This document shows positions 1,113 through 60,315 of a DNA stretch of 64,000 bases, in pieces. Origin of the DNA: Symbiodinium natans (Eukaryota; Sar; Dinophyceae; Suessiales; Symbiodiniaceae); NCBI GenBank assembly GCA_905221605.1, contig CAJNDS010001668.1, positions 794,276 to 858,275 on the forward strand, written 5' to 3'. The position numbers were made by a program, and so were the translations under genes. The stretch's first letter is position 1. Every line of letters starts with the position of its first letter. A model generated the notes under the pieces. That model worked only from the letters and a program-made list of their open reading frames with translations, made no database searches and was not told where the DNA came from.

Positions 1113-1497
1113 TAGAAACCTTCTTTGGGGTATTTATATTCCTGGGTATAGCTACCCATGAATCTTCAAGTAGGGTTTCGGGTGTAGAAAGAGAGAGGTT
1201 TACGGGGGTTCTGTTTCAGGCTTGTAGGATACCGGGGGTTGGGGCTTATAGGGTCCTTGGGTCCTTCTGTGCTTTCTTATGTGGTATGGCTTAGGGCTTG
1301 GTATGGTTTATTTAGGTATATCTGGGTTTTCGGTCCTAAGCCTACTTTGTGAACCCTGAACCCTGCCCCCCTCCCCCGCTACCGCTGCTTTTCTTTAGTG
1401 TTTGAGGGTATCCTTCTTATTTTGAAGATACTCGTCGGATGTTCTTCGGGGACGGAGTAGGATTTTGGGAATGTTCCTCAATTGGTAGAGTCCTTCT

Positions 1498-17100: not shown

Positions 17101-20100
17101 TTATTTTTAAGGGATTCTGCTGAAAAAAGGGACCTTCGTACCCTAAGTAGAGTGAAAAGAGGCCCTGCAACATCCCCCAGCGCCCCTCAGATGGGATGTT
17201 TCTTCTAGACCCTCACTCAGTTAGCGTCAGGAGAATCCTAAACCCTAAGCCCGACTAACCGATGATAGCATTTTCCGAATTCCTTTTCGTAAAACCCCAT
17301 GTAACGGTCATTTCCGAGTTCAGGGTTTTCGGCTTCAGACCCCAGTTCTGGTTTGAATTGAATTATGGATAAGGTTAAGGATATGATTATTGGTTATGAT
17401 CTGGTTATAGAAGGGAGAAGGTCATGGTGCTGGTTATTGGTTCTGGTTTAGGGTTTGTGATGTGAGGTTGGTCTTAGGATACTGTTTTAGAAATACGTAG
17501 GGCAGAAGCGTTGGGTGGGGGTATTGAGTGTGAGGTCTGGGGGAAGGGCGGTGCTTCGGATTTTGTTTTGTGCTTTGGGGTTTGGTGTTGTCTTGGGGCC
17601 CGAACCTTGAACCTGAAAGTCGTGAAAGTTAGGGTTTAGGTTTGTGGGTTTAAAGATCTGAAACCCCGAAACCCTAACCCCAGCAGAAGCAGCGAGGGCC
17701 ACTTCAAACCCCTCGACCTACACCCTAAACCCTAGTGAAACCCGGCACTGTAGAAAGGCGACGCTGACGTCGACAGACCTGGATTTGCCGCGAACACCTC
17801 TGTGGAGTTCGTGTGGGATGGTTTTCGTGCCGCCCTGCTGAAGTTTGAGCCGGTCTGGCGCATCCTCATGCTGCAGCTCTTGGATTTCTTGGTGCGCGGC
17901 TTGAACTTGGAAGAAGATATCCTCGGGCGGAAGGTTCACGAGCTTTTCGTGTGGTTGTCCGAAGATTGAGGTCATCAAACTGCCACTGCCGCAGTTTGCT
18001 GCACACGTGAGCACGCTGCTGCAGAGTGCCTAAACCTTACAACCCTAAACTCTAAACCCTAAACCCCAAACCCGAAACCTTATAGATGGGCAAACCTCAA
18101 TCCGACGCCAATTGCTACGACTCGTGAAAGCTAGGCGCAGACCGCAAGAACCCAAAGCCCTTGAGCCCTCATTAGCATGACCCTCAACCTTATGACCCCT
18201 CAACCTCAAGTCCTCAACTCCAAAGCCCTTAAACTAAACCTTAAATTAAATCCCTAAGTCCCAAATCCTCAGCCGGAACCGAGGGTTTAGGGTTTCGCGT
18301 CACCCAAGTTTGTCCTGGAGGACCCGCGTCCAGGCAACCCAGCGTTTCGGGCGAGACCAGGCTCCCGCTTTGCTTGAGTTTCGACTGCCTACGTGCAGAG
18401 TATGGGAACTATAGGTCGGCCCTTTTGGGATATGAGGGGGGGGGACCCTAAACCCGAAGTCCTACACCCCTTTCTGATACAGCTTCTCTTCTTGGCCTTA
18501 AGAGGATCGTGCTTAGGAGTTGTTTTTCAGAGGCTTTGAAGGGCCATCCCAGGGAACTAGGGAAGAATGGCTCAGGGTTTAGGGTTTAGGTTTAGAGGTT
18601 AGGGTTTAGGGTTTAGGGTTTAGGGTTTAGGGGGTGGATGCGGGGAACAGCGGGTTTCAGAGGTCCTTGGCTTGCTCTTGAACCTCGACGCGGGGAGCGC
18701 CAATGCCTTCGCCCCGAGGGGGTTCGGGCTTTTGGGTTTTTTTTTTCAGAATAGGGTTTAAATAGGGTTTAGGGTTTCGGGGTTTCGGGTTTAGGGTTTC
18801 AGGTTTTTTGTGGCTTTGGTGGTTTTAGGTGTTTGAAACTGGGGTGTTGAGGGCTTCGGGGTCTGTGTTTTTTTGAGGGCCTGTGCGGGCTCTTGGTTTT
18901 TCTTTCGGGGTGTTGAGGTCTTCAGGAGCTTTTGTGGCCTTTGGGAGGTTGGGTAAGAGTTTAAGGACCCCCCCCATTACAACTTAGAGAGCTTCCCCTA
19001 GTCCAGGGACATTGGGGTGTCTGGCGGAGTTGGGCGTAGGATTCAAGGCTTTTAGGCTTTTTTGCAAGGGTTACACGGTTTAGGATTTCATGTGCGGCAC
19101 GGAAAGGGAAGAGAGGCCAGCAGCACAAGAAGAAGCTGGCGTGGAGGGTTGTGCGAAATTCAACAAATTAGTCTAGTCTTGCTTTTCTGGCAGGGACAAT
19201 ATATTTTTGGGCTTTAGGAGGCTTTTTTTTCGGTTTAGGCTGTACTGAGTGTAGGGCTATGCCTGGAGTTCGCGGTTCCTAACCTACGAACTTGTAGGCC
19301 TTTTCAACGTAGTCGTAGGTTTCTGGTTTGTGCAGTTGGAAGTCACAACCCTAAACCCTGCACCTCAAACCCTAAACCCGATGCCAATGGTTTGTGCCCC
19401 AACCCCGCCTAACCTGCTTGCAGCTCTTTGAGTTGAGGGTTGAGGGTGTTCTCGGCACCTATGACCCCAATTATTCAATTCCAACTGCACTTACAAACCC
19501 CCTAAGTCCCCTAAGTAGGTTCTAGGTAGACTTACAAGTGGGGTTATAAGTACCCATGAACCTCCAAGTTGAGACAGGCGAATCCCCCCCGCTCCCCTCG
19601 CCTTGGAGCCGTCAAGCCCAAACTGTTCAAGCTTAGCCTCCCGTGGAAAAGGCGGTCACCGGATAACCTCCTGATCCGATGGCACATAAGGGCCTGTTTA
19701 TGACATTGCTTTGCGTATTTTGATATGGGGATGAGTCATGGTTAATACAAGGGGATAAAGTTTGTACCAAGCGGAGCTCATCTTCATGGGCATTTTAGGT
19801 TTGATTGCTCAGAGGAGCAAGGCGTCGAAGGTTTTACGAAATTCAGGTCTCTGCTAGCCAGGTTTGTTAAGGTGATTCCGCGAGCTACGCTTTCAGTACT
19901 TTCTTGGGTATAAGCTTCTTCTTTGTTTATGTCTTAGACATTCTATTTTCAGCTGTATATCTATGGGCTTCAATGGGCCTAAGCCCACACGTGCCTGGAG
20001 GCCAACACGGTGAGCCTCTTCCGGGACGGCATGAGGGCCGCCGCGGCTGCAATATCTTGATAGGGCTTAGGGCTTAGGGTTTAGGGTTTGGGGTTACGGT

Positions 20101-23025: not shown

Positions 23026-23086
<61 letters not shown>

Positions 23087-32000: not shown

Positions 32001-33815
32001 GGGTTAGGGGTGTAGCAGGGCTTCGGAATATACAGCCATCAACGCAACACGCAGAATCTCCGAAACTAGGACCCAGTGGTGGCCTTCTTTCATTAAGTGC
32101 TGGGGAACCAGAAGCCCGAGTAAACCCTAAACCCTACACCCTAAACCTTGTACAAGCATGGCCTGCGGCTCCAAGCTTAGGCGGAGGAAGTGCGAAAGCA
32201 CTTGGCCGAGAAGAAAGAGAAGGCGGGGGTTTCGGATTTTGTGGTTTGTGGTCCGGGGCTACTTGCTTAAGAACCAAAAGTTCAGGATATATTCCCTTTG
32301 TATTGCCCTTGGAAGGAAGAAAATATTTTTTTTTGGGGTGTTCTGCCCTAAGGTTCCAAAAACCCTCCCATAGATGGACTGGTACCTCCTGAAGGGATCT
32401 GGTGTCTCTGAGGGTACATCCATATGGTCCCTAACCTCCTACAAAGGGTTCTGATGTATGGGCCCTTAATGAATTTGTATAGGGTATATAAGGGCTATAT
32501 ACGGGGTACCCGTTTACGGGCCCATATTCAGGGACCATGTACCTACCCTAAGCCTCAATTCCTGCGGTTTTGATGAGGGCCCACGAGCCTTGGGGTCGGG
32601 TGCAACCTTTCGGACAAAACCGGCCCTCAACGGGCCCAATATAGGGGTCGGAATAGTTAGTAAGATTATCCACCTATGGTCCCATTATAGTTATACTGTA
32701 ATAACCCTCCAAAACCCTATTCCTAAACCCTAAACCCTAAACCCTAAACCCCTAATTATTCAGGCTCCTACATGATGGCCCACGGAAAGCTTTGATCCCG
32801 AATCTACGTTTCACGTCGTCCGGGGAGTCCGACCTGACGGCAGAGAAATAGACCTCAAACTATAACTAAACAGGGCCCCGCTTTTTTGCGTTTGTATACA
32901 TTCAAGTACACTTAACTATGCAGGCCCCTTTAATTGTGTATAGATTTAATCTCCTCCCCCTACTATTATCCCCCCCCCGCCGCCCGCTGCCCCCTGACAT
33001 AAAAAACTCCCGTATTCGAGTACATGGGTATTAAATATTCGGGGGGTTGGGGGGGTGTAGTGTTTGCGCGTAAATTTAGGTGGTACACTTCCTAAGTCAG
33101 GGGTCTTGAGCCAAACAATCCAAAGCTCTATCCAGTTGCCTTCGACCAGCATGCGCAGGTTTAGGGTTTAGGGTTTAGGGTTCGGGGTTTAGGGTTTAGG
33201 GTTCGGGGTTTAGGGTTTAGGGTTTGGGGTTTGGGGTTTGGGGTTTGGGGTTTAGGGGGCTGAAGGGTTCAGATTTTGCTTGTCCCTCGACCTGAAACCC
33301 CGAATAGTTCAATCCCAAACCCTGAAACCCTAAGAACCACACCAGGAGCTGCTGCGAGCAGCCAAGAAGGCGCCGAGTCGGATTTAGGGTTTAGGGTTTA
33401 GGGTTTAGGGTTCAGGGTTTAGGGTTTAGGGCGTAGGGCCCTCCACTCTGAGTACTTTTCAAGATTCGCTCGGAGTAGGGTTTAGGGATTTGGGAATGGG
33501 GTCCTTCATCAACTTGGACAGCATACCTGGACAAGCAACCCTGAACCCTAAACCTCAAACCCTAAACCCTAAACCCTAAACCCTAAACCCTAAACCCTAA
33601 ACCCTAAACCCTAACCCCAAGCCCAAAACAGCAGCCCCAAGTCCTGGAAGCCCTTGAGCCCTGTTGGAAGTGTTCCGGTGCTTCGCAGGGAAGGCCGGAT
33701 GTGACGTATCATGCCTGAGTCGGTATCGTGCGGGTTTAGGGTTTAGGGTTTAGGGTTCAGTGTTTAGGGTTCAGGGTATAGTCATCATCATCATCATCAA
33801 CATCATCATCATCGT

Positions 33816-33902
<87 letters not shown>

Positions 33903-54900: not shown

Positions 54901-57900
54901 TGTTTCTAGCTGCATGTTGTTTGTAAGGGGGGGTTGTTGGGAAGATACGCTTCTCGCGGCCGAGTTAGAGCACGACAACGTCTTGCTCTTGCATCTCCCT
55001 GCAGCTTGAAGTACACGGGATACATGGGAGCTTTGGCATCCTGAGCTTGATTCTGGATGAGAACATGTCTGGGGGTCTATGAAAATGGGGGACCCCCAAA
55101 AAGAACCCAAAGAGTAGGATTCCCTGATAAAAAGGACCCCCAAGAAGGTACCCCCAATTTCGGAAACCAGCCTGTCTTTGTTGGAATGTAGTAGTATTGG
55201 AGATTGAAGGACGAGGTACAGAGACCGCTGCGAGGGGGGGGGGAGGGGGGGTGGCTAAACCCTAAACCCTCAACCTAGCAAACAGAGCATCCAAACCTCA
55301 AGCCGCCTCATGATGGTTTGGGATCTGGATGGTTTGTAGGGTTCAACCCTAAGCCCTAAACCCTAAACCCCAAACCCTAAACCCTGAAACCTTTTTTTAT
55401 TCGGTAACCCGCCAACTGAGCCCCAATGACAGGAGGACAAACCCTAAACCCTAAACCCCAAATCCTACACCTTAAACCCCAAACCCTAAACCCTAAACCC
55501 TAAACTTTAAGAAGATGAGCCCCAATGGCAGGAGGACGACGCGATCCTGAAGTTCAACCAAGCGGTGCTGATGGCCGCGCACCTCAGTTCTGGCCCGGGT
55601 TTTTTGTCTCCTCAAGAGGCCGCACAGGTGCTAGAAGAGGGTTTAGGGTTTAGGGTTCAGGGTTCAGGGTTTAGGGTTTAGGGTTTAGGGTTCAGGGTTC
55701 AGGGTTTAGGGTTTAGGGTTTAGGGTTCAGGGTTCAGGGTTTAGGGTTTAGGGTTTAGGGTTTGGGGTTTGGGGTTTGGGTTTAGGTCATTTTGGGAGCC
55801 CTCAGGGCTGTTCGAGTTGGTTTTGTTTCCAAAATCGGGGGCATCGAAAATAGACTACTTCAGAACCCCTTAAAGGAAGCAAGGGACCACATTACGGGAC
55901 CGTGTAGCTACCCTTAGACAGTTGGGGGTTTCCGAAAGTCGGGGGTGCCCTTGTTGGTCACTTTAAGGGCATTCCGTTCTATTTGGGGTAGAAAAGGGGT
56001 ACCCCTATTTTGAGAAATGCCCATGTCGTGAAAAAGCTGTGCAAATACCTTGCTCAGTTTCCTCGTTCGCAAAGGGAAATTGTGGGTTAGGTTCCTTATT
56101 CTCAAAAAGAGCATGTGTGTTACCGAGCTCCCTAGTAAGCTTCACTGATACTCCGGCTGCCTGCCCCGCCCTGAAAATAGTAGGGTGCAGCGTTCCACCC
56201 CACGCCCTACAAATATTCCTTGGCCCCAGGCTACAAACCCGTCCCTAAACCCCAAACCCTAAGCCCTAAACACCAAAGCCTAAACCCTAAACCCTAAACC
56301 CTAAACCCTAGACCCCCCTACTCCTTTCGCCGAGTCCGGTCTGCCTGGCCCCGGCGCGCAGAACAACAAGGGCAGGGCCCCCCAGATTCCTTTGCAGCCC
56401 AGTCGTGCCCCTTCAGGGTTTGGGGTTTAGGGTTTGGGGTTTAGGGTAAATGGCTACTGGCTTATGCGACTTATGCAGGCGTTGGGGCTACACATGCCAA
56501 AATCCCTCGAGGCACTGAAACCTAAACCCTGAACCCTGGAGCCTTGGAGTCCTGAAAAAGTCTCCGGCATTGTCCCTTTTCTCGGTTTGGGGTATAGGAT
56601 CATGGGTTTTGTCCCTTTGCTCGGTTTGGGATACAGGATCACGGGTTTAGGGTTTGGGGCTTCGGGTTCCAGAATTTTGGTAAGTAGGGTCTGAAGCTAA
56701 GTCCCTAAACCCTCAAAGGCCTCAACCCCTAAGCCCGGGTAACACAAAGCCAGACCCGGAATACCAGAAAGGTCCGAACACCCTGAACCTAAACCCTGAA
56801 CCCAAACCCCAAACCCTAAACGACCCAGGATACCAGAAAGGTCCGAACAAGGGCTACCCAGACCAGAAGGCAGGTCGCGTTGAGGCTTTAGGGCTTGCAA
56901 GGGATTTCTGGGAACCACTAGGACCAGAGGAGGCCCTCCTTCCCCTTTTTGTTGGGTTTAGGTTCCCCTAGAAGCTTTCTAAGCCCAAAAAAGGGCTTCC
57001 TTTGTATTTCTATGATGTTGCTCTTGGGTCGAGTCGAGTTTCAAGGGTGCTATGTGAGACATGTTGGCAGGGCAAGGACACTAAGATTCAACACCGCCCA
57101 TCCACAGCGCAAATGCTGACGGACGTTTTCCGTTGAGAGGGAGGGCCTGGGGCGTAATCAAAGACTTGTTGTTTGTTAGTTCTTTGTGGTCTAGCATAGA
57201 GAAGGACTGGGCTTTCTGTTCTTCAAGGCCAATAAAGCTTAGACCTTACACCTAAACACTATATAAGGTTTCGGAAAGCTATACCTGCAGGATGTGTGCG
57301 CAAGGTCGGGAGAGAGGGCCAAGAGGCCCTCTCCTATGCAATTCGGCTTTAGGATTCAGGCCATAGGGCTTTTAGGCTGTTTGGGTTTTTATGTGTATAG
57401 GATCATACACTTGTAGCCTAGGCAAGCAGCCTGCAACACTCCAACCCGGAAACCCCAGAAACCCCTCAACTTGGGATGTTCCCCCTTATGCCAAGTCTTT
57501 TATAGGGATTTTCGTACGAACCGCCTCGTACGAACCCCCCCCCCCAATTCTCATCCCTAGTAAGGACTGTTAGTATAAGACGGAACATCCCAATCCTCAA
57601 CCTAACCTCAAGATTCTTTCAGGAGCCCGAGTCCTCTAGGCAGGTCTTAGATGCCACGCATCCTTGAAACGTCCTGGAGGGCCAGTGCCCAAAGATGAAT
57701 TGCTCTAAAATGTCAGGGCCGTGCAAGCACAGCGGACCCCAGAAGGAGGCCTGACCCCTAAACCCTCACCCCTTAACCCCTAAACCCTTCGGCCGAACTT
57801 TCCTGGAGTCCGATTCCGACTCTCCCAACCCCCAAAGCCGCCCCAAAACCTTCCTTGAGCCCCCGAAGGTTTAGGGTTTAGGGTTTAGGGTTTGGGGTTT

Positions 57901-60315
57901 AGGGTTTAGGGTTTAGGGTTTAGGGTTTAGGGTTTAGAGCCTTGCCCCCCCCAGCCCTTCTCTGGGAGCTTCTCAGCCTTCAGGGCAAGGGCAAGCCTGG
58001 GGGCTGGCCCATGCAGGCCTAGGGGGAGGGAGGGGGGTTTAGGATTTAGGGTTTAGGGTTTAGGGTTTCGGGCTAGGGTTTAGGGTTTAGGGTTTAGGGT
58101 TTAGGGTTTAGGGTTTAGGGTCTAGGGTTTAGGGTTTCGGGTTTAGGGTTTAGGGTTTAGGGTTTCGGGTTAGGGTTTAGGGTTTAGCCTGTTTGGGCTT
58201 AGGGTTCAGGGTTTAGTGGGAGTGGGGGGGGGGGGGGGGAGGCTGAGAGGTTTCGGGTGGGCTTTGGGGCTTGAGAGCGTCTGGATGCTCAATTTTAGGG
58301 TTTCGGGTTTAAGGTTTGTTCATCTCGTTTTCTCCCTCACCCTGTGCCGCTCGATTGTTATGCGGTAGGGGGCGGGCGAGTGGGGACGACTGCTAGGTGG
58401 AGGTATTAGGATTTGGGGCTTCCTGTCTTGTCTGGCAAGCTCATTTTTTTTGGTCGGGTTGCAGGGTGAAGGCTTTGGTGTTCGGGTAAGGTCCCCCTGT
58501 CAGCATCGCGAGACCTAGCACGAATACACCCTAAACCCTAAACCCCAAACCCTAAACCCTAAACCCTTAGACAAACTCCGCAGGGCTTCGACGGCAAGGG
58601 CTTCGGCTGGGGCGGCAAAGGAGGCTGGCGAATGCTTGGGGTTTTCTAGGGCTTAGGGTTTAGGGTTTAGGGTTTAGGGATTAGGGTTTAGGGTTTAGGG
58701 TGCCCTAGATTCGAGTTGGGAGTTTAGGGGTTTGGGGCATTGTCGGGTCGGGGTCGGGAGTACTCTCCAGGCTGCGAACCCTAAGCCTCAAAATCATGCC
58801 AGTGGGTTTAGGGTTTAGGGTTTAGGGTTTGGGGTTTGGGGTTGGGGTTTGGGGTTTGGGGTTTGGGGTTTGTTTTTTTTTGCTGAGTGCTTCTCTGTTT
58901 TTTGGCGGGGGCTACTTAGAGCCAGTAGGCAACAAAGCTCGCAGACTGGTCGTCATTGTTTTGGCTTTCAAGTGCTGCATATCCAGAAGCCCCAATAACT
59001 CGGGGCGGTTTCGGCAGCAGGAACCTGGTAGAAGGGTACCGCCCAGCCCAAGTACCGAAACCCGAAGACCTCCTAAACTCGAAAGCTCCACCCCCCCCCC
59101 CCCCCCCAATGGGAAAAATAACAATTCCCGTAAACCCTAAACCCTAAACCCTAAACCCTAAACCCTAAACCCTAAACCCTAAACCCTAAACCCTAAACCC
59201 TAAGCCTTACGTCCCCAAACCCCCCAAAGTCACCCCCGCAAATTCAGGCTGCATGGGCCCCATGGGCCCCATGGGCCCCATGGGCCCAGGCGGCTGCCAC
59301 TCGGCTCCCTTAAGGATGGGTTTAGGGTTTAGGGTTTTAGGGTTTAGGGTTTAGGGTTTAGGGTTTAGGGTTTAGGGTTTAGGGTTTAGGGTTTAGGGTT
59401 TAGGGTTTAGGTGTGCCGAATTCCTCTAAGTTGTGATTTTTTATGGTTTGCAGGCTGGTGTGGGGTAACATCGTTTGTTGCGGGGCTTTGTGTGCTGAGG
59501 GTTTGAGGCTTGGTCTGTCCGGCTTATAATTGCTTTACACTTTGTGGGCCTATTCTGGTGGGGGCTTGTCACTAGGTATGAAGTGGTTTCGTATCCAGCT
59601 TCCGGCTGTTGACAGCGTGCTCAGTTCCAAGGTCGTTCGCTCGTCCTTCTTTAGTGCGCATCCTTGACTGATGTGGAGGGTTGTGGAATAGAACGTCCCT
59701 TCCAAGTTGAAACCAACACTCAAAACCCCACACCCCCCCCCCCCCCCCCAAACTCAAGCGTTCATAAGTGAGTTTTTTGCTGCGCCAAGCCGCCCTGCCA
59801 GGCAAAGGCGGAATGCCGCCCCTCGGTATGCAACTATGCAAAGCAGGCAGAATGGTCGGTCTGATGGCCGGCCAGCGAAGAATCCGTAAGCCCTCAAAGC
59901 TTACACCCTAAAGCCCCAAACCGTACACCTTAGACCCTAAACCCCTCAACCCTAAACCCTGAAACCCTCAACCCCTCAACCCTACACCGTCCTACACTCT
60001 GGACCCCTCAAGTGCAGGAGATTTTGGGGTGTTTTCTCTTTTTTGGGGGTTTGGAGTTCACGGGCAGCTGTGACTCCCTGCAGCTTTGAGTGCGATTTTG
60101 GCCACTTCGGCCCTAGGGGGTCATGGATCCCTTTTAGGGAAGCGCTTGGGACGCCTCCCAAACCCTCCCCGAACCTAAACCCTAAACCCTAAGCCCTAAA
60201 CCCTAAGCCCTAAACCCTAAACCCTAAACCCTCCCACGCCCGAAGCCTGCGCTTCCTTGAGCCAAGGCCGAACAAAGGCAAGTTCAACAACTTCGGCAAG
60301 GGCTACGGGAAGTGA
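6214..60315 (+). CDS. Split gene for a SPRY-domain (hnRNP U-like) protein, about 60 micro-exons
   Basis: Overall model; the exons are listed separately. About 2.7 kb of coding sequence is spread over 54 kb, with exons averaging about 45 bases. The frame holds across nearly every junction from about 11.45 to 53.04 kb without an internal stop. SPRY motifs appear in the right order: [85 protein letters not shown]. Later motifs match, from memory, a protein type abundant in dinoflagellates. The tail is Gly/Lys-rich, as in RNA-binding proteins. The likely role is nuclear RNA binding; this is inferred from SPRY plus the Gly-rich tail. Most donors are GC, some GA or GT; all acceptors are AG, mostly followed by G. 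The start codon was not found. One short exon appears to be missing between 53.84 and 55.53 kb, and exons between 55.64 and 57.98 kb are unresolved. Confidence 0.85.
6390..6510. mobile_element. MITE-like family F, copy 1
   Basis: TAAGGAGGGACCCC left, GGGTCCCTCCTTTA right, with TATATAACCCC and CCCCTAAATAACCCC inside. Right after exon 1. Confidence 0.75.
7069..7117 (+). CDS. Exon 2: Ala/Pro-rich
   Basis: Lies between acceptor AAG and a GT donor. Encodes [16 protein letters not shown] and ends on one base, which joins exon 3 as ATG. CCCTAAA repeats run almost to the acceptor. Confidence 0.5.
7189..7293 (-). repeat. CCCTAAA array
   Basis: About 14 perfect heptamers in the intron between exons 2 and 3. 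Confidence 0.95.
7402..7492 (+). repeat. 11-bp tandem repeat GGGTTTATATA
   Basis: Eight units, with GGGTCTATATA variants toward the right. Confidence 0.9.
8919..8971 (+). CDS. Exon 3: Pro/Ala-rich linker
   Basis: Acceptor CAG ends at 8918; GT donor at 8972. Encodes [24 protein letters not shown]-type repeats precede it and TTTAGGG-type repeats follow within about 30 bases. Confidence 0.55.
9777..9869 (+). CDS. Exon 4: Pro-rich, ends in PPKDFGE
   Basis: Encodes [18 protein letters not shown] followed by KDFGE. Acceptor CTACAG gives phase 0. The 3' end may be at 9860 (GC donor) or 9869 (GT donor). Confidence 0.55.
10522..10552 (+). CDS. Exon 5: [10 protein letters not shown]
   Basis: Acceptor ACAG just before GAGCTTG, or alternatively GAG at 10513-10515, which would add RQ. 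Donor GC at 10553. Acidic and helix-prone. The join to exon 6 is not in phase, so at least one small exon between 10.55 and 11.45 kb is missing from this model. Confidence 0.45.
11450..11498 (+). CDS. Exon 6: start of SPRY region, [16 protein letters not shown]
   Basis: Acceptor CAG ends at 11449; the best donor is GA at 11499, giving a one-base overhang that fits exon 7. [14 protein letters not shown] is a motif I associate with dinoflagellate SPRY proteins. Confidence 0.75.
11755..11794 (+). CDS. Exon 7: [13 protein letters not shown]
   Basis: Acceptor CCAG ends at 11754; GC donor at 11795. Ends on CA, and exon 8 supplies G to make Gln. Phase agrees on both sides. Confidence 0.8.
12043..12082 (+). 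CDS. Exon 8: [13 protein letters not shown]
   Basis: Acceptor CAG ends at 12042. The donor is AAG|GCGGGG and the next acceptor is AAG|GCGGGC, so both intron edges carry the same eight bases. Joined to exon 9 it reads [12 protein letters not shown], the start of the SPRY fold. Reading on past the donor reaches a TAG at 12151-12153, which is intronic. Confidence 0.88.
12424..12484 (+). CDS. Exon 9: SPRY strand, [20 protein letters not shown]
   Basis: GRYLFEVKI is the classic SPRY signature (G-x-YxFEV). Donor AAG|GCCATC; the next acceptor is GAG|GCCCTC, so the edges again repeat. Confidence 0.9.
12819..12863 (+). CDS. Exon 10: [18 protein letters not shown]
   Basis: Acceptor GGGAG ends at 12818, donor TTAG|GCCGGC. 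Starts with two bases and ends with one; both fit the neighbours. NLLRLG is the SPRY segment usually seen as RVGF/RIGF. Confidence 0.88.
   Translation, partial: ALTPGWCSPRTCFG
13707..13750 (+). CDS. Exon 11: [19 protein letters not shown]
   Basis: Acceptor TTGCAG. The donor is most likely GA (GAG|GACGCT), with the next acceptor AAG|GACTCC; this gives GETEDSVCFD and the shared edge GGAC. A GC donor three bases later would add one Asp. The intron after it holds the zinc-ribbon nuclease gene. Confidence 0.88.
14082..14118. repeat. (AT)n microsatellite
   Basis: About 18 AT units, upstream of the zinc-ribbon nuclease gene. Confidence 0.97.
14430..16044 (+). pseudogene. Zinc-ribbon repeat / PD-(D/E)XK-like nuclease gene, one frameshift
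   Basis: Five tandem units of about 53 residues share the pattern L-x2-HA-x3-GG-x-C-(I/L), then KV-x-W-x-C-x2-GH, then (T/S)WC-x2-C. Cys-His-Cys-Cys is the expected zinc set of this treble-clef family (known in giant viruses and some algae). Units start at about 14775, 14955, 15142, 15320 and 15499. A nuclease-like domain follows (15665-16044): [35 protein letters not shown], resembling Vsr-type and related endonucleases. Units 1-2 and units 3-5 are in different frames; a single extra base near 15147 explains it, but a tiny intron or assembly error is possible. The ATG at 14430 is the first in frame; the first 110 residues show no motif. It lies in the intron between exons 11 and 12, on the same strand, without telomere repeat inside. 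Confidence 0.75.
16996..17058 (+). CDS. Exon 12: [24 protein letters not shown]
   Basis: Acceptor CTGAAG, donor [19 protein letters not shown] is the central SPRY motif in this protein type. 21 codons, phase 0 on both sides. Confidence 0.88.
17752..17972 (+). CDS. Orphan coding-like segment inside intron 12
   Basis: Follows an AG; open for 72 codons to TGA with GC-rich third positions, including [19 protein letters not shown]. The opposite strand is also open (17718-18014). The main gene joins without it. Function unknown. Confidence 0.3.
18309..18333 (+). CDS. Exon 13: FVLEDPRP
   Basis: Acceptor CCCAAG, donor CCAG|GCAACC. It has one overhanging base, completed by exon 14 to give Glu. It is the weakest link in the SPRY part, but both phases fit. 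Confidence 0.65.
18661..18698 (+). CDS. Exon 14: [16 protein letters not shown]
   Basis: Acceptor TTTCAG. Donor AGC|GCCAATG; the next acceptor is GAG|GCCAACA. The same GCCAA at both edges looks like a target-site duplication. Joined it reads [19 protein letters not shown]. Confidence 0.9.
20001..20036 (+). CDS. Exon 15: [16 protein letters not shown]
   Basis: Acceptor TGGAG. Several GC donors lie in the following GCC/GCG run; AGG|GCCGCC gives the family-like spacing to PLPE in exon 16. Confidence 0.9.
20953..20979 (+). CDS. Exon 16: VSQPLPLPE
   Basis: Acceptor CCGAG, donor GAG|GCTTGC; the next acceptor is CAG|GCGCTC. 27 bases. Bounded upstream by CCCTAAA repeats and downstream by TTTAGGG repeats. 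Confidence 0.88.
21694..21734 (+). CDS. Exon 17: [17 protein letters not shown]
   Basis: Acceptor TCGCAG. Donor CG|GTGCGC leaves two bases, completed by exon 18 to Arg. [14 protein letters not shown] is a strong SPRY C-terminal motif. Confidence 0.92.
21993..22031 (+). CDS. Exon 18: SPRY end, [12 protein letters not shown]
   Basis: Acceptor CTCCAG, GT donor at 22032. FNFG is the closing SPRY strand as in hnRNP U. Two trailing bases plus G of exon 19 make Lys. Confidence 0.92.
22513..22637. mobile_element. MITE-like family C, copy 1
   Basis: CATATGGTCCCTTACC near the left end and AAGGGACCATGTAACTACCC near the right, inverted. Central AATCGATTATAT. Lies just before exon 19. Confidence 0.6.
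22670..22718 (+). CDS. Exon 19: [16 protein letters not shown]
   Basis: Acceptor TTTCAG, donor AAG|GACCTT (GA type); the next acceptor is GAG|GACACG. It sits between two inverted-repeat elements that lie in the flanking introns. Confidence 0.88.
22738..22860. mobile_element. MITE-like family F, copy 2, inverted
   Basis: The reverse complement of copy 1 in order: GAGGGACC, GGGGTATTTAGGGG, GGGGTTATATA, GGGGTCCCTCCTTATAGCCC. Begins about 20 bases after exon 19. Other family ends are at 29560-29585 and at the window edge, 63984-64000. Confidence 0.75.
23026..23086. repeat. (ATC)n microsatellite
   Basis: About 20 units. The methionine run it gives on the minus strand is not a gene. Confidence 0.97.
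23284..23331 (+). CDS. Exon 20: [16 protein letters not shown]
   Basis: Acceptor GCGAG, donor GAG|GCAACC. 16 codons, phase 0 on both sides. Confidence 0.87.
24136..24180 (+). CDS. Exon 21: [15 protein letters not shown]
   Basis: Acceptor GCCAG, GC donor after [11 protein letters not shown] followed by VDLFL of exon 22 is a conserved post-SPRY motif. Confidence 0.9.
24689..24724 (+). CDS. Exon 22: [12 protein letters not shown]
   Basis: Acceptor GCTCAG, donor ACG|GTGCCT. A TTTAGGG array begins about 14 bases into the intron. Confidence 0.9.
25437..25472 (+). CDS. Exon 23: [12 protein letters not shown]
   Basis: Acceptor AAGCAG. GC donor at 25473, with TTTAGGG repeats starting within ten bases. 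Joined to exon 22 it reads [15 protein letters not shown]. Confidence 0.88.
26073..26107 (+). CDS. Exon 24: [11 protein letters not shown]
   Basis: Acceptor AGAAG, donor AG|GCCAGG. Two trailing bases join G of exon 25 to make Arg. Confidence 0.78.
26304..26410. mobile_element. 107-bp inverted-repeat element (family G)
   Basis: AGGACCTACAGGGTGGGG at the left, complement of AGGCTCTACAGGGTGGGG at the right; repeated TTATAACC inside. In the intron between exons 24 and 25. Confidence 0.75.
26702..26776 (+). CDS. Exon 25: [15 protein letters not shown] region
   Basis: Acceptor CAGAG; donor CTCAG|GACGCC (GA type), with the next acceptor CCCAG|GAAACT. 25 residues, including [20 protein letters not shown] and then RRALR. 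Confidence 0.9.
26882..26996. mobile_element. MITE-like family A, copy 1
   Basis: Right end AAGGACTGTC...GGGGGAACATCCCAA; left end a degraded inverse with ATACTAACAGTCCT. About 115 bp, in the intron between exons 25 and 26. Confidence 0.7.
27380..27439 (+). CDS. Exon 26: [19 protein letters not shown]
   Basis: Acceptor CCCCAG, donor AG|GTGAGA, the most canonical GT donor in the gene. Basic and Arg/Ser-rich. Phase fits both neighbours. Confidence 0.82.
28006..28266 (+). repeat. Stepwise-variant telomere-like array
   Basis: Blocks in order: TTTAGGG, then about 13 TTTGGGG, then TTTTAGGG, TTCAGGG, TTTAGGG, TTTAGGC and TTTAGGG. Variants are clustered, not mixed, which points to local expansion. 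Confidence 0.9.
28429..28536 (+). CDS. Orphan coding-like segment inside intron 26
   Basis: After [24 protein letters not shown] and then [15 protein letters not shown] and TAA. It looks like the C-terminal exon of another protein; not recognised. Confidence 0.3.
   Translation, partial: EAHGFWNPSALAKTCSKMYNDKALSAPSEEVDENF
29176..29236 (+). CDS. Exon 27: [20 protein letters not shown]
   Basis: Acceptor ACAAG, followed by C rather than the usual G. Donor AAG|GAGCGT (GA type); the next acceptor is CAG|GAGCTG, edges sharing AGGAGC. Confidence 0.88.
29479..29526 (+). CDS. Exon 28: [16 protein letters not shown]
   Basis: Acceptor ACCAG, GC donor. Joined to exon 27 it reads [20 protein letters not shown]. 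Confidence 0.9.
29778..29911 (+). CDS. Orphan coding-like segment inside intron 28
   Basis: [20 protein letters not shown], then a charged stretch ending in TAA. It resembles exon 44 loosely (RF-x-TH...SWK), so it may be a decayed relative. Confidence 0.3.
30190..30234 (+). CDS. Exon 29: [15 protein letters not shown]
   Basis: Acceptor CTGCAG, GA donor (CAG|GATGGG); an acceptor nine bases upstream is possible. Begins the charged helical region. Confidence 0.8.
31029..31067 (+). CDS. Exon 30: [13 protein letters not shown]
   Basis: Acceptor CTGGAG, GT donor after GAA. The open frame extends further upstream (LRELE), so the acceptor could lie earlier. Coiled-coil-like. Confidence 0.8.
31094..31196. 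mobile_element. MITE-like family C, relative
   Basis: AGGGTCCATGTACC left and GGTACATGGACCC right, with inner CTTGGGCC / GGGTCCCAAG. A related half copy follows at 31757-31840. Confidence 0.65.
31454..31480 (+). CDS. Exon 31: VNAEFELQQ
   Basis: Acceptor ACCAG, donor CAG|GCTCGC; the next acceptor is TAG|GCGGAG. Coiled-coil-like. Confidence 0.8.
32181..32222 (+). CDS. Exon 32: [14 protein letters not shown]
   Basis: Acceptor CTTAG, GC donor after AAG. Strongly charged helix. Confidence 0.82.
32405..32553. mobile_element. MITE-like family C, copy 2
   Basis: AGGGTACATCCATATGGTCCC left, GGGACCATGTACCTACCC right, with ATGTATGGGCCC / GGGCCCATATTC inside. About 150 bp. Confidence 0.6.
32644..32768. 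mobile_element. MITE-like family D, copy 2, interrupted by CCCTAAA repeats
   Basis: Same left end and core as copy 1, but CCTATTC is followed by about four CCCTAAA units before the right end resumes as CTAATTATTCAGGCTCC. In copy 1 these two parts are contiguous. Confidence 0.7.
33346..33369 (+). CDS. Exon 33: ELLRAAKK
   Basis: Acceptor ACCAG, GC donor AAG|GCGCCG. The frame stays open a few codons longer, so the end is not certain. Confidence 0.7.
33782..33942 (+). repeat. (CAT)n-(CAG)n microsatellite, possibly an exon
   Basis: CAT run (33782-33812), then about 28 CAG (33816-33900). In one frame it gives poly-His, poly-Gln, then [13 protein letters not shown] followed by GTAAGC, an excellent donor, after an acceptor TATAG. 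Exon 33 joins exon 34 without it, so it may be an alternative exon or chance. Confidence 0.6.
34532..34676 (-). repeat. CCCTAAA array ending in a MITE
   Basis: About 20 perfect heptamers, fused to the family A copy at 34675. Confidence 0.95.
34675..34759. mobile_element. MITE-like family A, copy 2, left end replaced by telomere repeat
   Basis: Right end matches family A (GGACTGTTAGTATAAGGGGG, then ATCCCAA). The left end starts only at TATACTAACAG, fused directly to a CCCTAAA array of about 20 repeats. Confidence 0.7.
34898..34930 (+). CDS. Exon 34: [11 protein letters not shown]
   Basis: Acceptor GGCGAG, donor CAG|GCTCGG. Ala/Arg/Glu helix. A TTTTAGGG-type array begins about 20 bases downstream. 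Confidence 0.8.
34944..35326 (+). repeat. Octamer-drift array (TTTTAGGG, TTTGAGGG, TTTTTGGG)
   Basis: Starts about 15 bases after exon 34 and passes through homogeneous blocks of TTTTAGGG, TTTGAGGG, TTTTAGGG, TTTAGGGG and TTTTTGGG. Confidence 0.9.
35803..36051 (-). CDS. Orphan coding-like segment, minus strand, intron 34
   Basis: Minus-strand frame with [20 protein letters not shown], then [20 protein letters not shown]. Stops lie just upstream, so an exon border would be needed. The region 35340-36560 is unusually free of telomere repeat; plus-strand frames there are also partly open. Confidence 0.3.
   Translation of the reverse strand, partial: DPDYIRRHNPRAHFLKISESYVLRLTKALNWSTDDGKSVQTFIARQKDLHVQKTGILEHDAQIAVTYPIRPIRDPGPRNPEW
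37057..37089 (+). CDS. Exon 35: [11 protein letters not shown]
   Basis: Acceptor GCGAAG, donor GAG|GCGGAC. The following intron carries the cox1 insertion. Confidence 0.8.
37107..37183 (+). repeat. TTTAGGG array
   Basis: About 11 heptamers beginning 17 bases after exon 35, bordered on both sides by ACCAGGTT (GTTACCAGGTT on the right). Confidence 0.9.
37549..37892. other. Mitochondrial-type noncoding DNA with GC-stem hairpins
   Basis: AT-rich and continuous with the cox1 copy. Perfect inverted repeats: 37685-37695 with 37719-37729 (11 bp), 37744-37750 with 37769-37775 (GGGGCGC), 37796-37802 with 37814-37820 (ACGGGCT); another spans the cox1 3' end, 37893-37902 with 37924-37933 (10 bp). The word GAACGAAGTG recurs three times. 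Such hairpins are known between dinoflagellate mitochondrial genes. Confidence 0.7.
37893..39012 (-). pseudogene. cox1: Nuclear copy of mitochondrial cox1, 5'-truncated
   Basis: Minus-strand reading shows cytochrome c oxidase subunit I from EFGGGTG through [47 protein letters not shown] and [10 protein letters not shown]. Roughly the first 120 residues are absent; at 39012 the sequence switches to CCCTAAA repeats. Three in-frame stops occur: TGA at 38979-38981 where Trp is expected after GGTG, and TAG at 38355-38357 and 38349-38351. The sequence is AT-rich, unlike its neighbours. It lies in the intron between exons 35 and 36, on the opposite strand. In the mitochondrion the protein is the catalytic haem-copper subunit of complex IV; this copy cannot be expressed in the nucleus as such. 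Confidence 0.92.
39090..39125 (+). CDS. Exon 36: [12 protein letters not shown]
   Basis: Acceptor CCGAG, GC donor. Lies about 80 bases from the right end of the cox1 insertion, with CCCTAAA repeats between. Acidic. Confidence 0.82.
39126..39464 (+). other. Intron 36: model case of paired telomere-like ends
   Basis: GC donor, then TTTAGGG/TTTGGGG repeats from about 39150; CCCTAAA/CCCCAAA repeats from about 39376 to 12 bases before the AG. Only about 125 bases of ordinary sequence lie between, so the RNA ends could pair. Confidence 0.8.
39465..39503 (+). CDS. Exon 37: [13 protein letters not shown]
   Basis: Acceptor CCGAAG, GC donor. The intron before it is only 339 bases and shows the paired TTTAGGG...CCCTAAA layout very clearly. 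Confidence 0.82.
39539..39788. mobile_element. Family D copy 3 carrying a nested family E element
   Basis: Outer ends are family D (GGGGTCGGAATAA left; ATTCCCTTAGGGTCCC, AAAACCCTATTCTA right). Inside are inverted arms CTTGCTGTTGGTTAGTAGGG (39552-39571) and its complement (39680-39699, 19 of 20). The left arm continues as GGAAAGAGGGAATG only after about 50 bases of TTTAGGG repeat plus a piece of GGTCGGAATAA. Confidence 0.7.
39800..40800. other. Second AT-rich tract of probable mitochondrial origin
   Basis: No telomere motif for 1 kb. Shares GAACGAAGTGAA-like words with the tract beside cox1 (39930, 39973, 40325) and small hairpins: CCAGA/TCTGG and CTTGG/CCAAG near 39925-39995, GGCCGT 40353-40358 with ACGGCC 40373-40378. 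No recognisable gene. It sits in the intron between exons 37 and 38. Confidence 0.5.
41003..41090. repeat. 44-bp tandem duplication
   Basis: Two identical copies (41003-41046, 41047-41090), each containing the palindrome-like CATATG and TTCGAACATG. Adjacent to the AT-rich tract. Confidence 0.9.
41272..41358 (-). repeat. 9-bp tandem repeat ACCCTACTA
   Basis: About nine units growing out of a CCCTAAA array. Confidence 0.9.
41405..41434 (+). CDS. Exon 38: [10 protein letters not shown]
   Basis: Acceptor AAGAG, donor GAG|GCCTCC. The open frame extends upstream (PQE), so an acceptor at 41394 is possible. ELTE precedes a hydrophobic/Arg-Pro motif in exon 39. Confidence 0.78.
41483..41584. mobile_element. 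MITE-like family B, copy 1
   Basis: Left GGGGTTTACGAACATAGGGG, right complement of GCGGTTTCCTAGAATAGGGG. Core words TAGGATTCCC, AAGGACCC and GGTACCCC recur in all copies. Confidence 0.75.
42167..42196 (+). CDS. Exon 39: [10 protein letters not shown]
   Basis: Acceptor GCCAG, GC donor after ACT. Joined to exon 38 it reads [21 protein letters not shown] array begins about 55 bases into the intron. Confidence 0.78.
42962..42981 (+). CDS. Exon 40: ESPDVL
   Basis: Only 20 bases. Acceptor CCAAG, donor CTGCA|GCCCCA. Chosen because both phases fit; a longer version ending before GGTTTGGGG is possible. Confidence 0.55.
43547..43647. mobile_element. MITE-like family B, copy 2
   Basis: GGGGGTTTACGAAGATAGGGG start, core TAGGATCCCC and AAGGACCCC, right end TCGTGAATCCCC. 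Confidence 0.75.
43895..43964 (+). CDS. Exon 41: [15 protein letters not shown]
   Basis: Acceptor CCAAG, donor AAC|GCCGCC. Begins [18 protein letters not shown] is conserved in this protein type and fixes the frame. Confidence 0.88.
44300..44347 (+). CDS. Exon 42: [16 protein letters not shown]
   Basis: Acceptor AAGAAG, donor AAG|GCACCA; the next acceptor is CAG|GAGTGG. TTTAGGG repeats begin about 20 bases into the intron. Confidence 0.88.
45627..45685 (+). CDS. Exon 43: [19 protein letters not shown]
   Basis: Acceptor GCTCAG. Donor TG|GTCCCG leaves two bases, completed by exon 44 to Trp. Upstream CCCTAAA repeats end about 20 bases before the exon. Confidence 0.9.
45780..45884. mobile_element. 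MITE-like family A, copy 3 (complete)
   Basis: Both ends present: TTGGGATGTTCCCCCTT at the left, complement AAGGGGTGAACATCCCAA at the right, with inner AGTCCTTAA / TTTAAGGACT. 105 bp. Confidence 0.85.
46320..46347 (+). CDS. Exon 44: FNTHLNSWK
   Basis: Acceptor ACTCAG, GA donor AAG|GACATC. Joined to exon 43 it reads [14 protein letters not shown]. Confidence 0.85.
46403..46414 (+). CDS. Exon 45: QKLR
   Basis: Acceptor AGAAG, a possible GA donor after CGT. The preceding intron would be only 55 bases, nearly all CCCTAAA repeat. Both ends are uncertain. Confidence 0.45.
47514..47543 (+). CDS. Exon 46: [10 protein letters not shown]
   Basis: Acceptor CTCCAG, GA donor CAG|GACGGC; the next acceptor is CAG|GAGGAG. 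Reading on reaches a TAG at 47553, so an alternative is a terminal exon of a separate upstream gene; the in-frame join to exon 47 favours splicing. Confidence 0.72.
48077..48118 (+). CDS. Exon 47: [14 protein letters not shown]
   Basis: Acceptor GCGCAG, donor GAG|GCTCCG; the next acceptor is AAG|GCCACG. Acidic linker. Confidence 0.82.
48697..48895 (-). repeat. 10-bp tandem repeat CCCTATAAAC
   Basis: About 19 units with a few AATCCCTAT variants, passing into CCCTAAA on the right. Confidence 0.9.
48988..49023 (+). CDS. Exon 48: [12 protein letters not shown]
   Basis: Acceptor AAAAG, donor AAG|GCCGGC. Acidic linker. The TTTAGGG-type array begins about 15 bases into the intron. Confidence 0.82.
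50085..50137 (+). CDS. Exon 49: [17 protein letters not shown]
   Basis: Acceptor TGGGAG. GT donor leaves two bases, completed by exon 50 to Pro. [17 protein letters not shown] is a conserved motif that opens the third block. Confidence 0.9.
50706..50790 (+). CDS. Exon 50: [20 protein letters not shown]
   Basis: Acceptor CCGAG, donor AAG|GCGCCG. 28 residues starting LCSQ before the named stretch and ending SFKK. One of the most distinctive motifs of the gene. Confidence 0.92.
51407..51468 (+). CDS. Exon 51: [20 protein letters not shown]
   Basis: Acceptor CTGGAG, donor CAG|GCAAGT (GC). Two trailing bases make Arg with exon 52. Confidence 0.92.
51991..52009 (+). CDS. Exon 52: YFRKTF
   Basis: 19 bases. 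Acceptor CTGCAG, GC donor TTC|GCAGCG. Joined it reads [19 protein letters not shown], which fixes both borders. Confidence 0.88.
52466..52516 (+). CDS. Exon 53: [17 protein letters not shown]
   Basis: Acceptor CTGAG, GA donor AAG|GAACGC; the next acceptor is CAG|GACACG. Confidence 0.9.
52988..53038 (+). CDS. Exon 54: [17 protein letters not shown]
   Basis: Acceptor ATGCAG, donor GAG|GCCCTT; the next acceptor is CAG|GATCTC. Joined it reads [20 protein letters not shown]. Confidence 0.9.
53797..53856 (+). CDS. Exon 55: [20 protein letters not shown]
   Basis: Acceptor TTCCAG. The 3' end is not fixed; open frame continues to a TAG at 53881. A short exon carrying the residues between RRERE and EDDAILKF appears to be missing from this model. 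Confidence 0.85.
54476..54517. repeat. (CTC)n microsatellite
   Basis: About 14 units, in the intron between exons 55 and 56. Confidence 0.95.
55071..55168. mobile_element. MITE-like family B, copy 3
   Basis: GGGGGTCTATGAAAATGGGG start, core TAGGATTCCC, right end ATTTCGGAAACC. Shortly upstream of the duplicated exon 56 border. Confidence 0.7.
55417..55537 (+). repeat. 22-base direct repeat around a telomere-like array at an exon edge
   Basis: Copies at 55417-55438 and 55516-55537 differ at one base. Between them are mainly CCCTAAA repeats. The second copy holds the exon 56 acceptor and first codons. Confidence 0.88.
55532..55640 (+). CDS. Exon 56: [18 protein letters not shown] region
   Basis: Acceptor TGGCAG. 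36 codons, closing with [14 protein letters not shown]; the GT donor is the first base pair of a TTTAGGG array (G|GTTTAGGG). The 22 bases around the acceptor also occur 99 bases upstream, with telomere-like repeat between. A shorter exon ending before GTGCTG is possible. Confidence 0.72.
55924..56022. mobile_element. MITE-like family B, copy 4 (divergent)
   Basis: GGGGGTTTCCGAAAGTCGGGGG start and GGGGTACCCCTATTTTGAGAA end; core diverged. Confidence 0.6.
57471..57593. mobile_element. MITE-like family A, copy 4 (complete)
   Basis: TTGGGATGTTCCCCCTTAT at the left and a complementary right end. The central region has its own inverted pair, TCGTACGAAC twice around CGCC. 123 bp. Confidence 0.85.
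57984..58016 (+). CDS. Exon 57: [11 protein letters not shown]
   Basis: Acceptor TTCAG, donor CAG|GCCTAG. Gly/Lys-rich tail. Other tail exons may lie between 55.7 and 57.9 kb (for example EPESSRQ at 57623-57643). Confidence 0.72.
58584..58623 (+). CDS. Exon 58: [13 protein letters not shown]
   Basis: Acceptor CCGCAG. Donor GGAG|GCTGGC and next acceptor TCAG|GCTGCA share AGGCTG. CCCTAAA repeats end about 15 bases before the exon and TTTAGGG repeats start about 20 bases after it. Confidence 0.8.
58624..59247 (+). other. Intron 58: paired telomere-like ends
   Basis: TTTAGGG repeats start about 25 bases in; a CCCTAAA array (59130-59203) lies near the 3' end. AGGCTG at both borders. Confidence 0.8.
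59248..59289 (+). CDS. Exon 59: Gly-Pro-Met repeat
   Basis: Acceptor TTCAG, donor CCCAG|GCGGCT. Encodes [13 protein letters not shown]; the frame used here fits both neighbours. The other joinable frame would give HGP repeats. Confidence 0.72.
59290..60277 (+). other. Intron 59: paired telomere-like ends
   Basis: A TTTAGGG array of about 12 units (59317-59409) near the donor and CCCTAAA repeats (60175-60233) near the acceptor. The middle is ordinary sequence with short poly-C. Confidence 0.8.
60278..60315 (+). CDS. Exon 60 (terminal): [11 protein letters not shown] and stop
   Basis: Acceptor CAAAG, stop TGA at 60313-60315. An acceptor 12 bases upstream (CCAAG) would join exon 59 in its other frame. 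The C-terminus FGKGYGK is typical of Gly-rich RNA-binding tails. No polyadenylation signal was identified. Confidence 0.8.

What the first reader, a model, noticed from the sequence alone, without database searches (positions are those of the whole stretch)
18699..60277. Introns with complementary telomere-like ends
Many introns carry TTTAGGG-type repeats just inside the 5' end and CCCTAAA-type repeats just inside the 3' end (clear in the introns after exons 15, 20, 23, 36, 39, 41, 42, 51, 58 and 59). In RNA the ends would pair, bringing weak GC/GA splice sites together. This could be a structural aid to splicing, or the mark of an intron-forming mobile element with telomere-like inverted ends.
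Basis: partly seen in the sequence, partly recalled or inferred. Interest (0 to 1): 0.92.

Follow-up and report, generated by a model that had tools for sequence, protein, structure and literature searches.

The report
Telomere-like arrays oriented around algal exons
In a dinoflagellate alga, short chromosome-end-like repeats scattered through the genome tend to sit beside gene segments in one preferred orientation, which suggests that they are shaped by, or help, the cutting-out of introns.

Summary
The repeats are real and their orientation is not chance. The genome is a dinoflagellate (205 exact spliced-leader copies). It holds about 3.58 million TTTAGGGTTTAGGG starts, equal on both strands. 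In 170.5 kb (window plus 19 fetched loci), neighbouring arrays 80-160 bp apart are ordered CCCTAAA-gap-TTTAGGG 64 times and 26 times in each other order; shuffled labels give 35.5±4.5. Outside the window it is 31 against 14.5±2.8. Genome-wide, 143,611 against 54,154 starts at a 90-120 bp gap, reversed at 0-30 bp.

Its two causes are not well supported. Pairing cannot set orientation, because C-first/G-last introns would pair equally well. The two ends of one intron are not associated in the ab initio set, though they are in 26 kinesin introns (p 0.027, both cases in one gene). Inner arrays are orientation-random (G 92: C 92). Little filler is shared; a palindromic introner-like family exists separately. 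I favour a local splicing constraint. Its effect on splicing is untested.

The parts
18600..60400 (+). Intron-rich gene region (approximate limits); ab initio chain of 73 exons, last exon ends in ...[14 protein letters not shown] near 60315
   Evidence: no Pfam or PDB match that identifies it, so exon edges are provisional
36969..36999 (-). CCCTAAA (C-type) tract abutting the acceptor side of an exon-like segment
37000..37106 (+). Exon-like segment between C-type and G-type tracts, bounded by AG and GTTAGGG
37107..37307 (+). TTTAGGG (G-type) tract starting at the donor side
55345..55505 (-). C-type tract upstream of an exon-like segment
55506..55637 (+). Exon-like segment ([27 protein letters not shown]...) in a C-G gap
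55638..55786 (+). G-type tract downstream of that segment
59131..59203 (-). C-type tract before exon-like segment 59204-59317
59318..59411 (+). G-type tract after exon-like segment 59204-59317
43778..43877 (+). Counter-example: G-type tract ending 17 bp before a coding-like segment (43895-43988, [20 protein letters not shown]...), i.e. on the acceptor side
54117..54129 (-). Counter-example: small C-type tract (7 hits) just after a coding-like segment (within 53967-54116, [22 protein letters not shown]), i.e. on the donor side; upstream of that segment lie a 50-hit C-type tract and a 4-hit G-type one
45780..45884 (.). About 105-bp palindromic introner/MITE-like element, a separate repeat family without telomere-like ends
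37903..38923 (-). Fragment of mitochondrial cox1 (nuclear insertion); the nearest tracts on both sides are C-type (37500-37523 and 39010-39080)

Best explanation
The arrays are interstitial telomere-like repeats scattered genome-wide in a dinoflagellate nuclear genome. Their orientation is neutral inside introns, but at exon edges they are kept, or expand, in the orientation that suits splicing. G-type (TTTAGGG in the RNA) lies just after the donor. C-type (CCCTAAA in the RNA) lies just before the acceptor. Shown: orientation, position, excess over local tract density, GC and GA donors beside GT, and no pyrimidine excess upstream of array-free kinesin exons. Inferred: G-runs beside weak donors act as intronic splicing enhancers, and CCCTAAA gives an AG-free, C-rich, CTAAAC (branch-point-like) stretch before the acceptor. 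In the wrong orientation TTTAGGG would bring decoy AG and GT sites next to the acceptor. Each end is probably set on its own; pairing between the ends is then a by-product.
For: Pooled 170.5 kb, 356 tracts: at 80-160 bp gaps CG 64 against 35.5±4.5 (p 0.0002); at 160-600 bp GC 48 against 30.2±4.3 (p 0.0002); without the window, CG 31 against 14.5±2.8. Whole-genome CG:GC ratio 0.38 at 0-30 bp, 2.65 at 90-120 bp, 1.99 at 210-240 bp, as expected if an exon sits between C and G. Near ab initio exons, G-type downstream 33 (random placement 10.8±2.9) and C-type upstream 24 (11.3±3.1): correct orientations are in excess. Homology-defined kinesin introns: 5' tract G in 3 of 3 (2, 21, 22 nt from the donor), 3' tract C in 3 of 3 (12, 20, 53 nt from the acceptor), of 26 introns. 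Inner tracts random (G 92: C 92). Ends not associated within introns in the ab initio set. Upstream flanks of 52 kinesin exons without tracts have C+T of 0.50 (flanks taken from match edges, so approximate).
Against: No transcript or splicing data. 22 of 26 kinesin introns have no tract within 200 nt of either end, so arrays are not needed for splicing. In those 26 introns the two ends are associated (p 0.027, both positives in one gene), which fits pairing or paired-end origin. Counting all 61 kinesin exon matches with tracts within 150 bp, the bias is milder: downstream G 8: C 4, upstream C 7: G 3. Exceptions exist: 43895-43988, 53967-54116, and kinesin exon L028:179-304 followed by C-type. 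Outside the window the open-frame test does not separate CG gaps (p 0.17; coding score p 0.033). A decoy chain on the minus strand also leaned G-type downstream (G 18: C 10). Scarcity of C-type after donors is not explained by AG avoidance. A bias tied to intron birth could give the same pattern.
Confidence: 0.5

Rival explanations
1. Intron birth by repair: telomerase adds TTTAGGG to one or both 3' ends of a break in an exon (left end reads G-type, right end reads C-type on the coding strand). Only products that can be spliced survive, so G-type is favoured after the left exon and C-type or G-type before the right exon.
For: Gives the right polarity from chemistry alone. The donor-side rule is strict and the acceptor-side rule loose in the ab initio set (G 33: C 8 against C 24: G 17). 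GC exceeds CG 2.7-fold at 0-30 bp (7,810 against 2,937). Telomeric repeats inserted at breaks are documented in mammals (PMC2246262, abstract and outline; PMC7215372, search listing only).
Against: Short C-G gaps are scarce anyway if an exon must fit between, so the 2.7-fold excess is not specific. Inner tracts are orientation-random, although breaks inside introns should also give G then C. In three kinesin introns the array starts 2, 21 and 22 nt inside the donor, not flush with it. The cox1 insertion has C-type tracts as nearest neighbours on both sides, so it does not show a G-filler-C layout. No empty orthologous site could be seen.
Confidence: 0.18
2. Structural aid: the 5' G-type and 3' C-type arrays pair in the pre-mRNA and bring weak splice sites together.
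For: 13 of 13 folded introns (those up to 900 nt among 33 inter-anchor stretches) pair end to end in the minimum-energy structure, and reversing the C tract weakens the energy in all 13. Donors are often GC or GA. In 26 kinesin introns the two ends are associated (p 0.027). Amoebophrya introners carry terminal inverted repeats with the same proposed role (PMC7789003, passages).
Against: Pairing is blind to orientation, yet C-first/G-last is disfavoured. With the C tract reversed 11 of 13 still pair end to end, so the folding test discriminates poorly. In the ab initio set co-occurrence is not enriched, if anything reduced (7 both, 25 and 17 one only, 23 neither; OR 0.38, p 0.08 at 60 bp; OR 0.29, p 0.018 at 100 bp). 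Both kinesin introns with two arrays are in one gene.
Confidence: 0.14
3. The introns are a transposable introner family whose terminal inverted repeats are telomere-like.
For: Introner elements with inverted repeats at intron ends are known in dinoflagellates (PMC7789003, PMC10666404, PMC9860276: passages). Arrays lie at intron ends.
Against: In the window the masked self-comparison gave 4 rows besides the 541-bp tandem, so few array-bearing introns share sequence; for the other loci only part of the rows was printed (81 in all). Tract lengths at the two ends are not significantly correlated. Ends not associated in the ab initio set. A palindromic 105-bp element is distinct from the arrays. 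Copies of intron bodies elsewhere in the genome were not searched for.
Confidence: 0.1
4. Artefact: chance order of abundant simple repeats, or my tract and gap definitions.
For: Arrays are everywhere, and gaps between adjacent arrays are often about 100 bp in all four classes.
Against: Label permutation within loci, replication outside the window, two tract thresholds, and whole-genome counts agree.
Confidence: 0.03

Closest known systems
Introner elements of dinoflagellates (Amoebophrya, Prorocentrum, Symbiodinium)
   Same: Inverted repeats near both ends of introns; intron-rich genes; GC/GA donors; proposed hairpin joining the exon boundaries (PMC7789003, passages; PMC10666404, passages; PMC9860276, passages).
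   Different: Here the repeats are long degenerate telomere-like arrays, not family-specific 8-20-nt repeats, and are often at one end only. In the passages I read, telomeric sequence is named only at scaffold ends (PMC7789003); the word does not occur in the main text of the other two.
Interstitial telomeric sequences (ITS) inserted at double-strand breaks
   Same: Short arrays of the organism's telomere repeat at internal sites, on both strands; the dinoflagellate telomere is TTTAGGG (PMC11453091, PMC11508785, passages).
   Different: About 3.58 million 14-mer starts in 759 Mb, with a preferred orientation relative to exons, which I have not seen described for ITS.
Hairpin-ended non-conventional introns of euglenids (recalled, no call)
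   Same: Intron ends thought to be brought together by base pairing.
   Different: The kinesin introns here fit AG acceptors (20 of 26 followed by G) and GT/GC/GA donors, and most lack arrays.

Membership tests
Dinoflagellate nuclear genome | Spliced-leader sequence present in many copies | tested here: met
   CCGTAGCCATTTTGGCTCAAG 104 + 101 exact copies, reversed control 0
Dinoflagellate nuclear genome | GC and GA donors alongside GT, acceptor AG|G | tested here: met
   GC 9, GT 8, GA 5 of 22 unambiguous kinesin introns (26 of 27 pairs resolved; only these donors and AG were allowed); first exon base G in 20 of 26
Interstitial telomeric sequences | Arrays of the species' telomere repeat at internal sites on both strands | tested here: met
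   1,788,098 forward and 1,787,600 reverse 14-mer starts; control 257 and 280; the telomere repeat itself is taken from papers
Interstitial telomeric sequences | Inserted by telomerase or repair: empty orthologous site in a relative | not testable with these tools
   The genome has no relatives in the collection
Introner elements | Inverted repeats at both ends of the same intron | tested here: inconclusive
   7 of 72 ab initio introns have both within 60 bp, not enriched; 2 of 26 kinesin introns, enriched p 0.027 but one gene
Introner elements | Shared body sequence among copies at different sites | tested here: inconclusive
   Little within the window (4 rows besides one tandem); rows for other loci cut at 81; whole genome not searched
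Introner elements | Direct repeats or target-site duplications at exon borders | not tested
   Exact borders known for only 4 array-bearing introns
Base-paired intron ends | Ends complementary and co-occurring in one intron | tested here: inconclusive
   Complementary yes; co-occurrence not enriched in 72 ab initio introns, enriched in 26 kinesin introns through one gene

The most novel reading that the evidence does not exclude
A genome in which telomere-like arrays act as a strand-specific mark of exon borders: perhaps tens of thousands of exons are bracketed CCCTAAA-exon-TTTAGGG, either because the spliceosome reads the arrays as donor-side and acceptor-side signals, or because telomerase-made repair tracts were converted wholesale into intron ends.
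Probability: 0.25. Interest if true: 0.88.

Novelty: new variant of a known kind. Interest (0 to 1): 0.62.

Why it matters
Dinoflagellates splice very intron-rich genes from GC, GA and GT donors without an obvious acceptor tract; how the sites are found is open. An array orientation rule tied to exon edges, countable genome-wide, makes two questions directly testable with transcript data. One is whether telomere-like repeats serve splicing. The other is whether telomere-type repair feeds intron gain. It also warns that 'inverted repeats at intron ends' in dinoflagellates may partly be oriented telomere-like arrays rather than transposon ends.

Tried and rejected
Gene identity: Pfam on two read-through frames of 18001-32998 and on spliced pieces, and PDB, gave only weak matches above E 0.1, so the window gene model stays ab initio. 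A first gene finder without exon costs called 447 exons on one strand and 435 on the other and was dropped. An EM that learned donor context drifted to GTTTAG because arrays lie at donors; dropped as circular. The + strand chain scores 262 and the - strand 213, so single exons must not be trusted; the decoy - strand chain had C 15: G 13 upstream and G 18: C 10 downstream. Segments were judged by eye only.

A general G-to-C composition gradient in introns was not seen in array-free kinesin flanks. Head-to-head telomere fusion as the main origin is not favoured by the short-gap counts, but that comparison is rough: counts at different gap lengths are not comparable, because long arrays are counted several times, and only CG against GC at the same gap is used. 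AT-rich stretches of L019 and L028 turned out to hold runs of N and were not used. Pattern scan of viral contigs: 0. Gap classes under 60 bp hold no GG or CC by construction (merging) and are not used. Loci left out of the pooled counts: L001, L003-L008, L010, L012, L013 (overlapping copies or a single array) and L030-L035 (intron-free kinesins).

The kinesin association of both ends was missing; pairing went from 0.12 to 0.14.

Full report
WHAT THE SEQUENCE IS. The window is G000:C1668:794276-858275 of a 759.4-Mb assembly in 2,543 contigs. The 21-base dinoflagellate spliced leader occurs 205 times exactly and its reversed control 0 times, so the organism is a dinoflagellate. Size and contig number resemble an assembly of 761.6 Mb in 2,855 scaffolds that I take to be Symbiodinium natans from a table in PMC8045281 (passages); this is an inference, not a test. 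TTTAGGG is the known dinoflagellate telomere repeat (PMC11453091 and PMC11508785, passages). The 14-mer TTTAGGGTTTAGGG starts at 1,788,098 forward and 1,787,600 reverse places against 257 and 280 for the reversed control. The arrays are genome-wide and strand-balanced.

IS THE OBSERVATION THERE? The window has 467 TTTAGGG and 350 CCCTAAA heptamers. With a tract defined as at least four heptamer hits in any register, there are 208 tracts, 102 of them G-type. The segments between a C-type and the next G-type tract were listed and look, by eye, largely like exons. In 170,525 bases (the window plus 19 fetched loci, 356 tracts) the C-to-G gap distribution peaks at 100-140 bp, while G-to-C gaps are broad. 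At 80-160 bp the counts are CG 64, GC 26, GG 26, CC 26; shuffling orientation labels within loci gives 35.5±4.5 for CG (p 0.0002). At 160-600 bp GC has 48 against 30.2±4.3 (p 0.0002) and CG 17 against 30.3±4.3. Without the window CG at 80-160 bp is 31 against 14.5±2.8 (p 0.0002; all). Five thousand shuffles were made, so 0.0002 is the floor. The 19 loci are not a random sample: five are arbitrary stretches, ten are kinesin genes, four came with earlier matches.

GENOME-WIDE. Counting starts of two 13-mers at a fixed gap range gives: 0-30 bp, CG 2,937 and GC 7,810; 90-120 bp, CG 143,611 and GC 54,154; 210-240 bp, CG 328,832 and GC 165,048. Both patterns are their own reverse complement, so gene strand does not matter. 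A long array is counted several times, so only CG against GC at one gap range is meaningful. The ratio flips from 0.38 to 2.65 as the gap becomes long enough to hold an exon.

ARE THE C-G GAPS EXONS? Codon scores trained on kinesin genes of this genome (3,629 codons) are higher in the 34 window CG gaps than in the 49 others (p 0.0007; p 0.009 with either strand allowed). In other loci the coding score also separates them (18 CG against 12 others, p 0.033), but the open-frame fraction does not (p 0.17). The score hardly tells the strands of window CG gaps apart (medians 4.4 and 4.0), so it is weak evidence. G+C is 0.581 (CG) and 0.579 (GG) against 0.537 (GC) and 0.526 (CC). GG gaps in the window also hold coding-like segments, so the donor-side rule is firmer than the acceptor-side rule. 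Homology gives a small independent set. The kinesin search returned 131 matches, and ten intron-rich genes were fetched. Of 61 matched exons, tracts within 150 bp downstream were G 8: C 4 and upstream C 7: G 3. Of 27 adjacent exon pairs, 26 gave an intron; donors were GC 9, GT 8, GA 5 among 22 unambiguous ones (only GT, GC, GA and AG were allowed). A 5' tract occurred in 3 (all G-type, 2, 21 and 22 nt from the donor) and a 3' tract in 3 (all C-type, 12, 20 and 53 nt from the acceptor). Twenty-two of 26 had none within 200 nt, so arrays are not required for splicing. One of the array-bearing introns (L029 2553-3858) rests on a weak score of 15.0.

LOCAL, NOT INTRON-WIDE. Between consecutive C-exon-G anchors, inner tracts (not touching the anchors) were G 92 and C 92 with no trend along the intron. 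The order 'all G then all C' was no more frequent than expected: 7 of 9, 2 of 4, 17 of 33 and 7 of 10 against 7.4, 2.2, 17.4 and 5.9. Around 73 ab initio exons of the window, a tract lies within 60 bp upstream of 41 and downstream of 41, against 23.9±4.3 and 23.7±4.0 for random placement. G-type downstream is 33 against 10.8±2.9 and C-type upstream 24 against 11.3±3.1 (400 draws, p floor 0.0025). So correctly oriented arrays are in excess near predicted exons; this is more than a purge of wrong ones. Array-free kinesin flanks show no such gradient.

PAIRING AND MOBILE ELEMENT. Thirteen of 13 folded introns (up to 900 nt, of 33 inter-anchor stretches) pair end to end; 11 of 13 still do with the C tract reversed, at weaker energies. 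Pairing is equally good for C-first/G-last, so it cannot set the orientation. In the ab initio set G at 5' and C at 3' do not co-occur more than expected (7 both, 25 G only, 17 C only, 23 neither; OR 0.38, p 0.08; at 100 bp OR 0.29, p 0.018). False exons could hide an association. In the 26 kinesin introns the ends are associated (2 both, 1 and 1 single, 22 neither, p 0.027), but both positives are in one array-rich gene. The question of paired ends is therefore open, leaning to no. A masked self-comparison gave 4 rows within the window besides a tandem, and for the other loci (81 rows printed in all) tandems and a few short dispersed families. One family is a 105-bp palindrome; it makes up about 101 of 185 bp of a kinesin intron (L021 363-547). 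It has 1,919 first-look candidates in the genome, 40 scored (the query among them), all matching on both strands. This resembles the introners described in S. microadriaticum (PMC9860276, passages), and it carries no telomere-like ends.

MECHANISM. I favour a splicing-linked constraint acting end by end on telomere-like arrays that arise without regard to genes. Steps shown: abundance, orientation, position, excess, GC and GA donors. Steps inferred: that G-runs help weak donors, that CCCTAAA helps or does no harm before acceptors, and that TTTAGGG (which contains AG and GT) harms acceptors. The roles of G-runs and branch points are recalled general knowledge. The main rival is telomerase-assisted break repair that made the introns.

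NOVELTY. Searches of the held library for dinoflagellate introns with telomeric repeats, introners with telomeric repeats, interstitial telomeric repeats in dinoflagellates, and Symbiodinium with TTTAGGG gave no description of oriented arrays in the listings or passages I read. Roy et al. 2023 (Curr Biol), a main study of dinoflagellate introners, is cited in papers I read but I did not see its text, and no supplementary files were read. The claim of novelty is therefore limited.

Noticed in passing
window 37903-38923 (-): AT-rich nuclear insertion of a mitochondrial cox1 fragment (COX1, E 4.7e-53, from a query of two joined pieces with about four residues not read from the window).
   Followed up: partly
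window 45780-45884; partial copies 34717-34759 and 57553-57593; L017 32-137; L021 391-491: About 105-bp palindromic MITE/introner-like family; in L021 it makes up about 101 of 185 bp of a kinesin intron. 1,919 first-look candidates genome-wide, 40 scored.
   Followed up: partly
window 55095-55168 and 41504-41586; L014 2659-2740; L002 1134-1203; L028 6857-6925: A second short dispersed family, about 70-85 bp, about 82-86% identical.
   Followed up: no
window about 1400-4150: Tandem copies (about five) of a 541-bp unit; a 64-residue piece of its reading frames has no Pfam match.
   Followed up: no
window 15094-16042 (+): Long open reading frame with repeated DUF4379 treble-clef zinc fingers (E 4.3e-13) and a C-terminal part like an endonuclease (the latter recalled, not tested).
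   Followed up: no
window 33816-33901 and 23026-23086: Perfect CAG (28.7 copies) and CAT (20.3 copies) runs.
   Followed up: no
G000 kinesin family: Several full-length kinesin domains lie in one open frame (e.g. C1951, C2377, C233) beside very intron-rich copies, as would be expected of retroposed genes (recalled).
   Followed up: no
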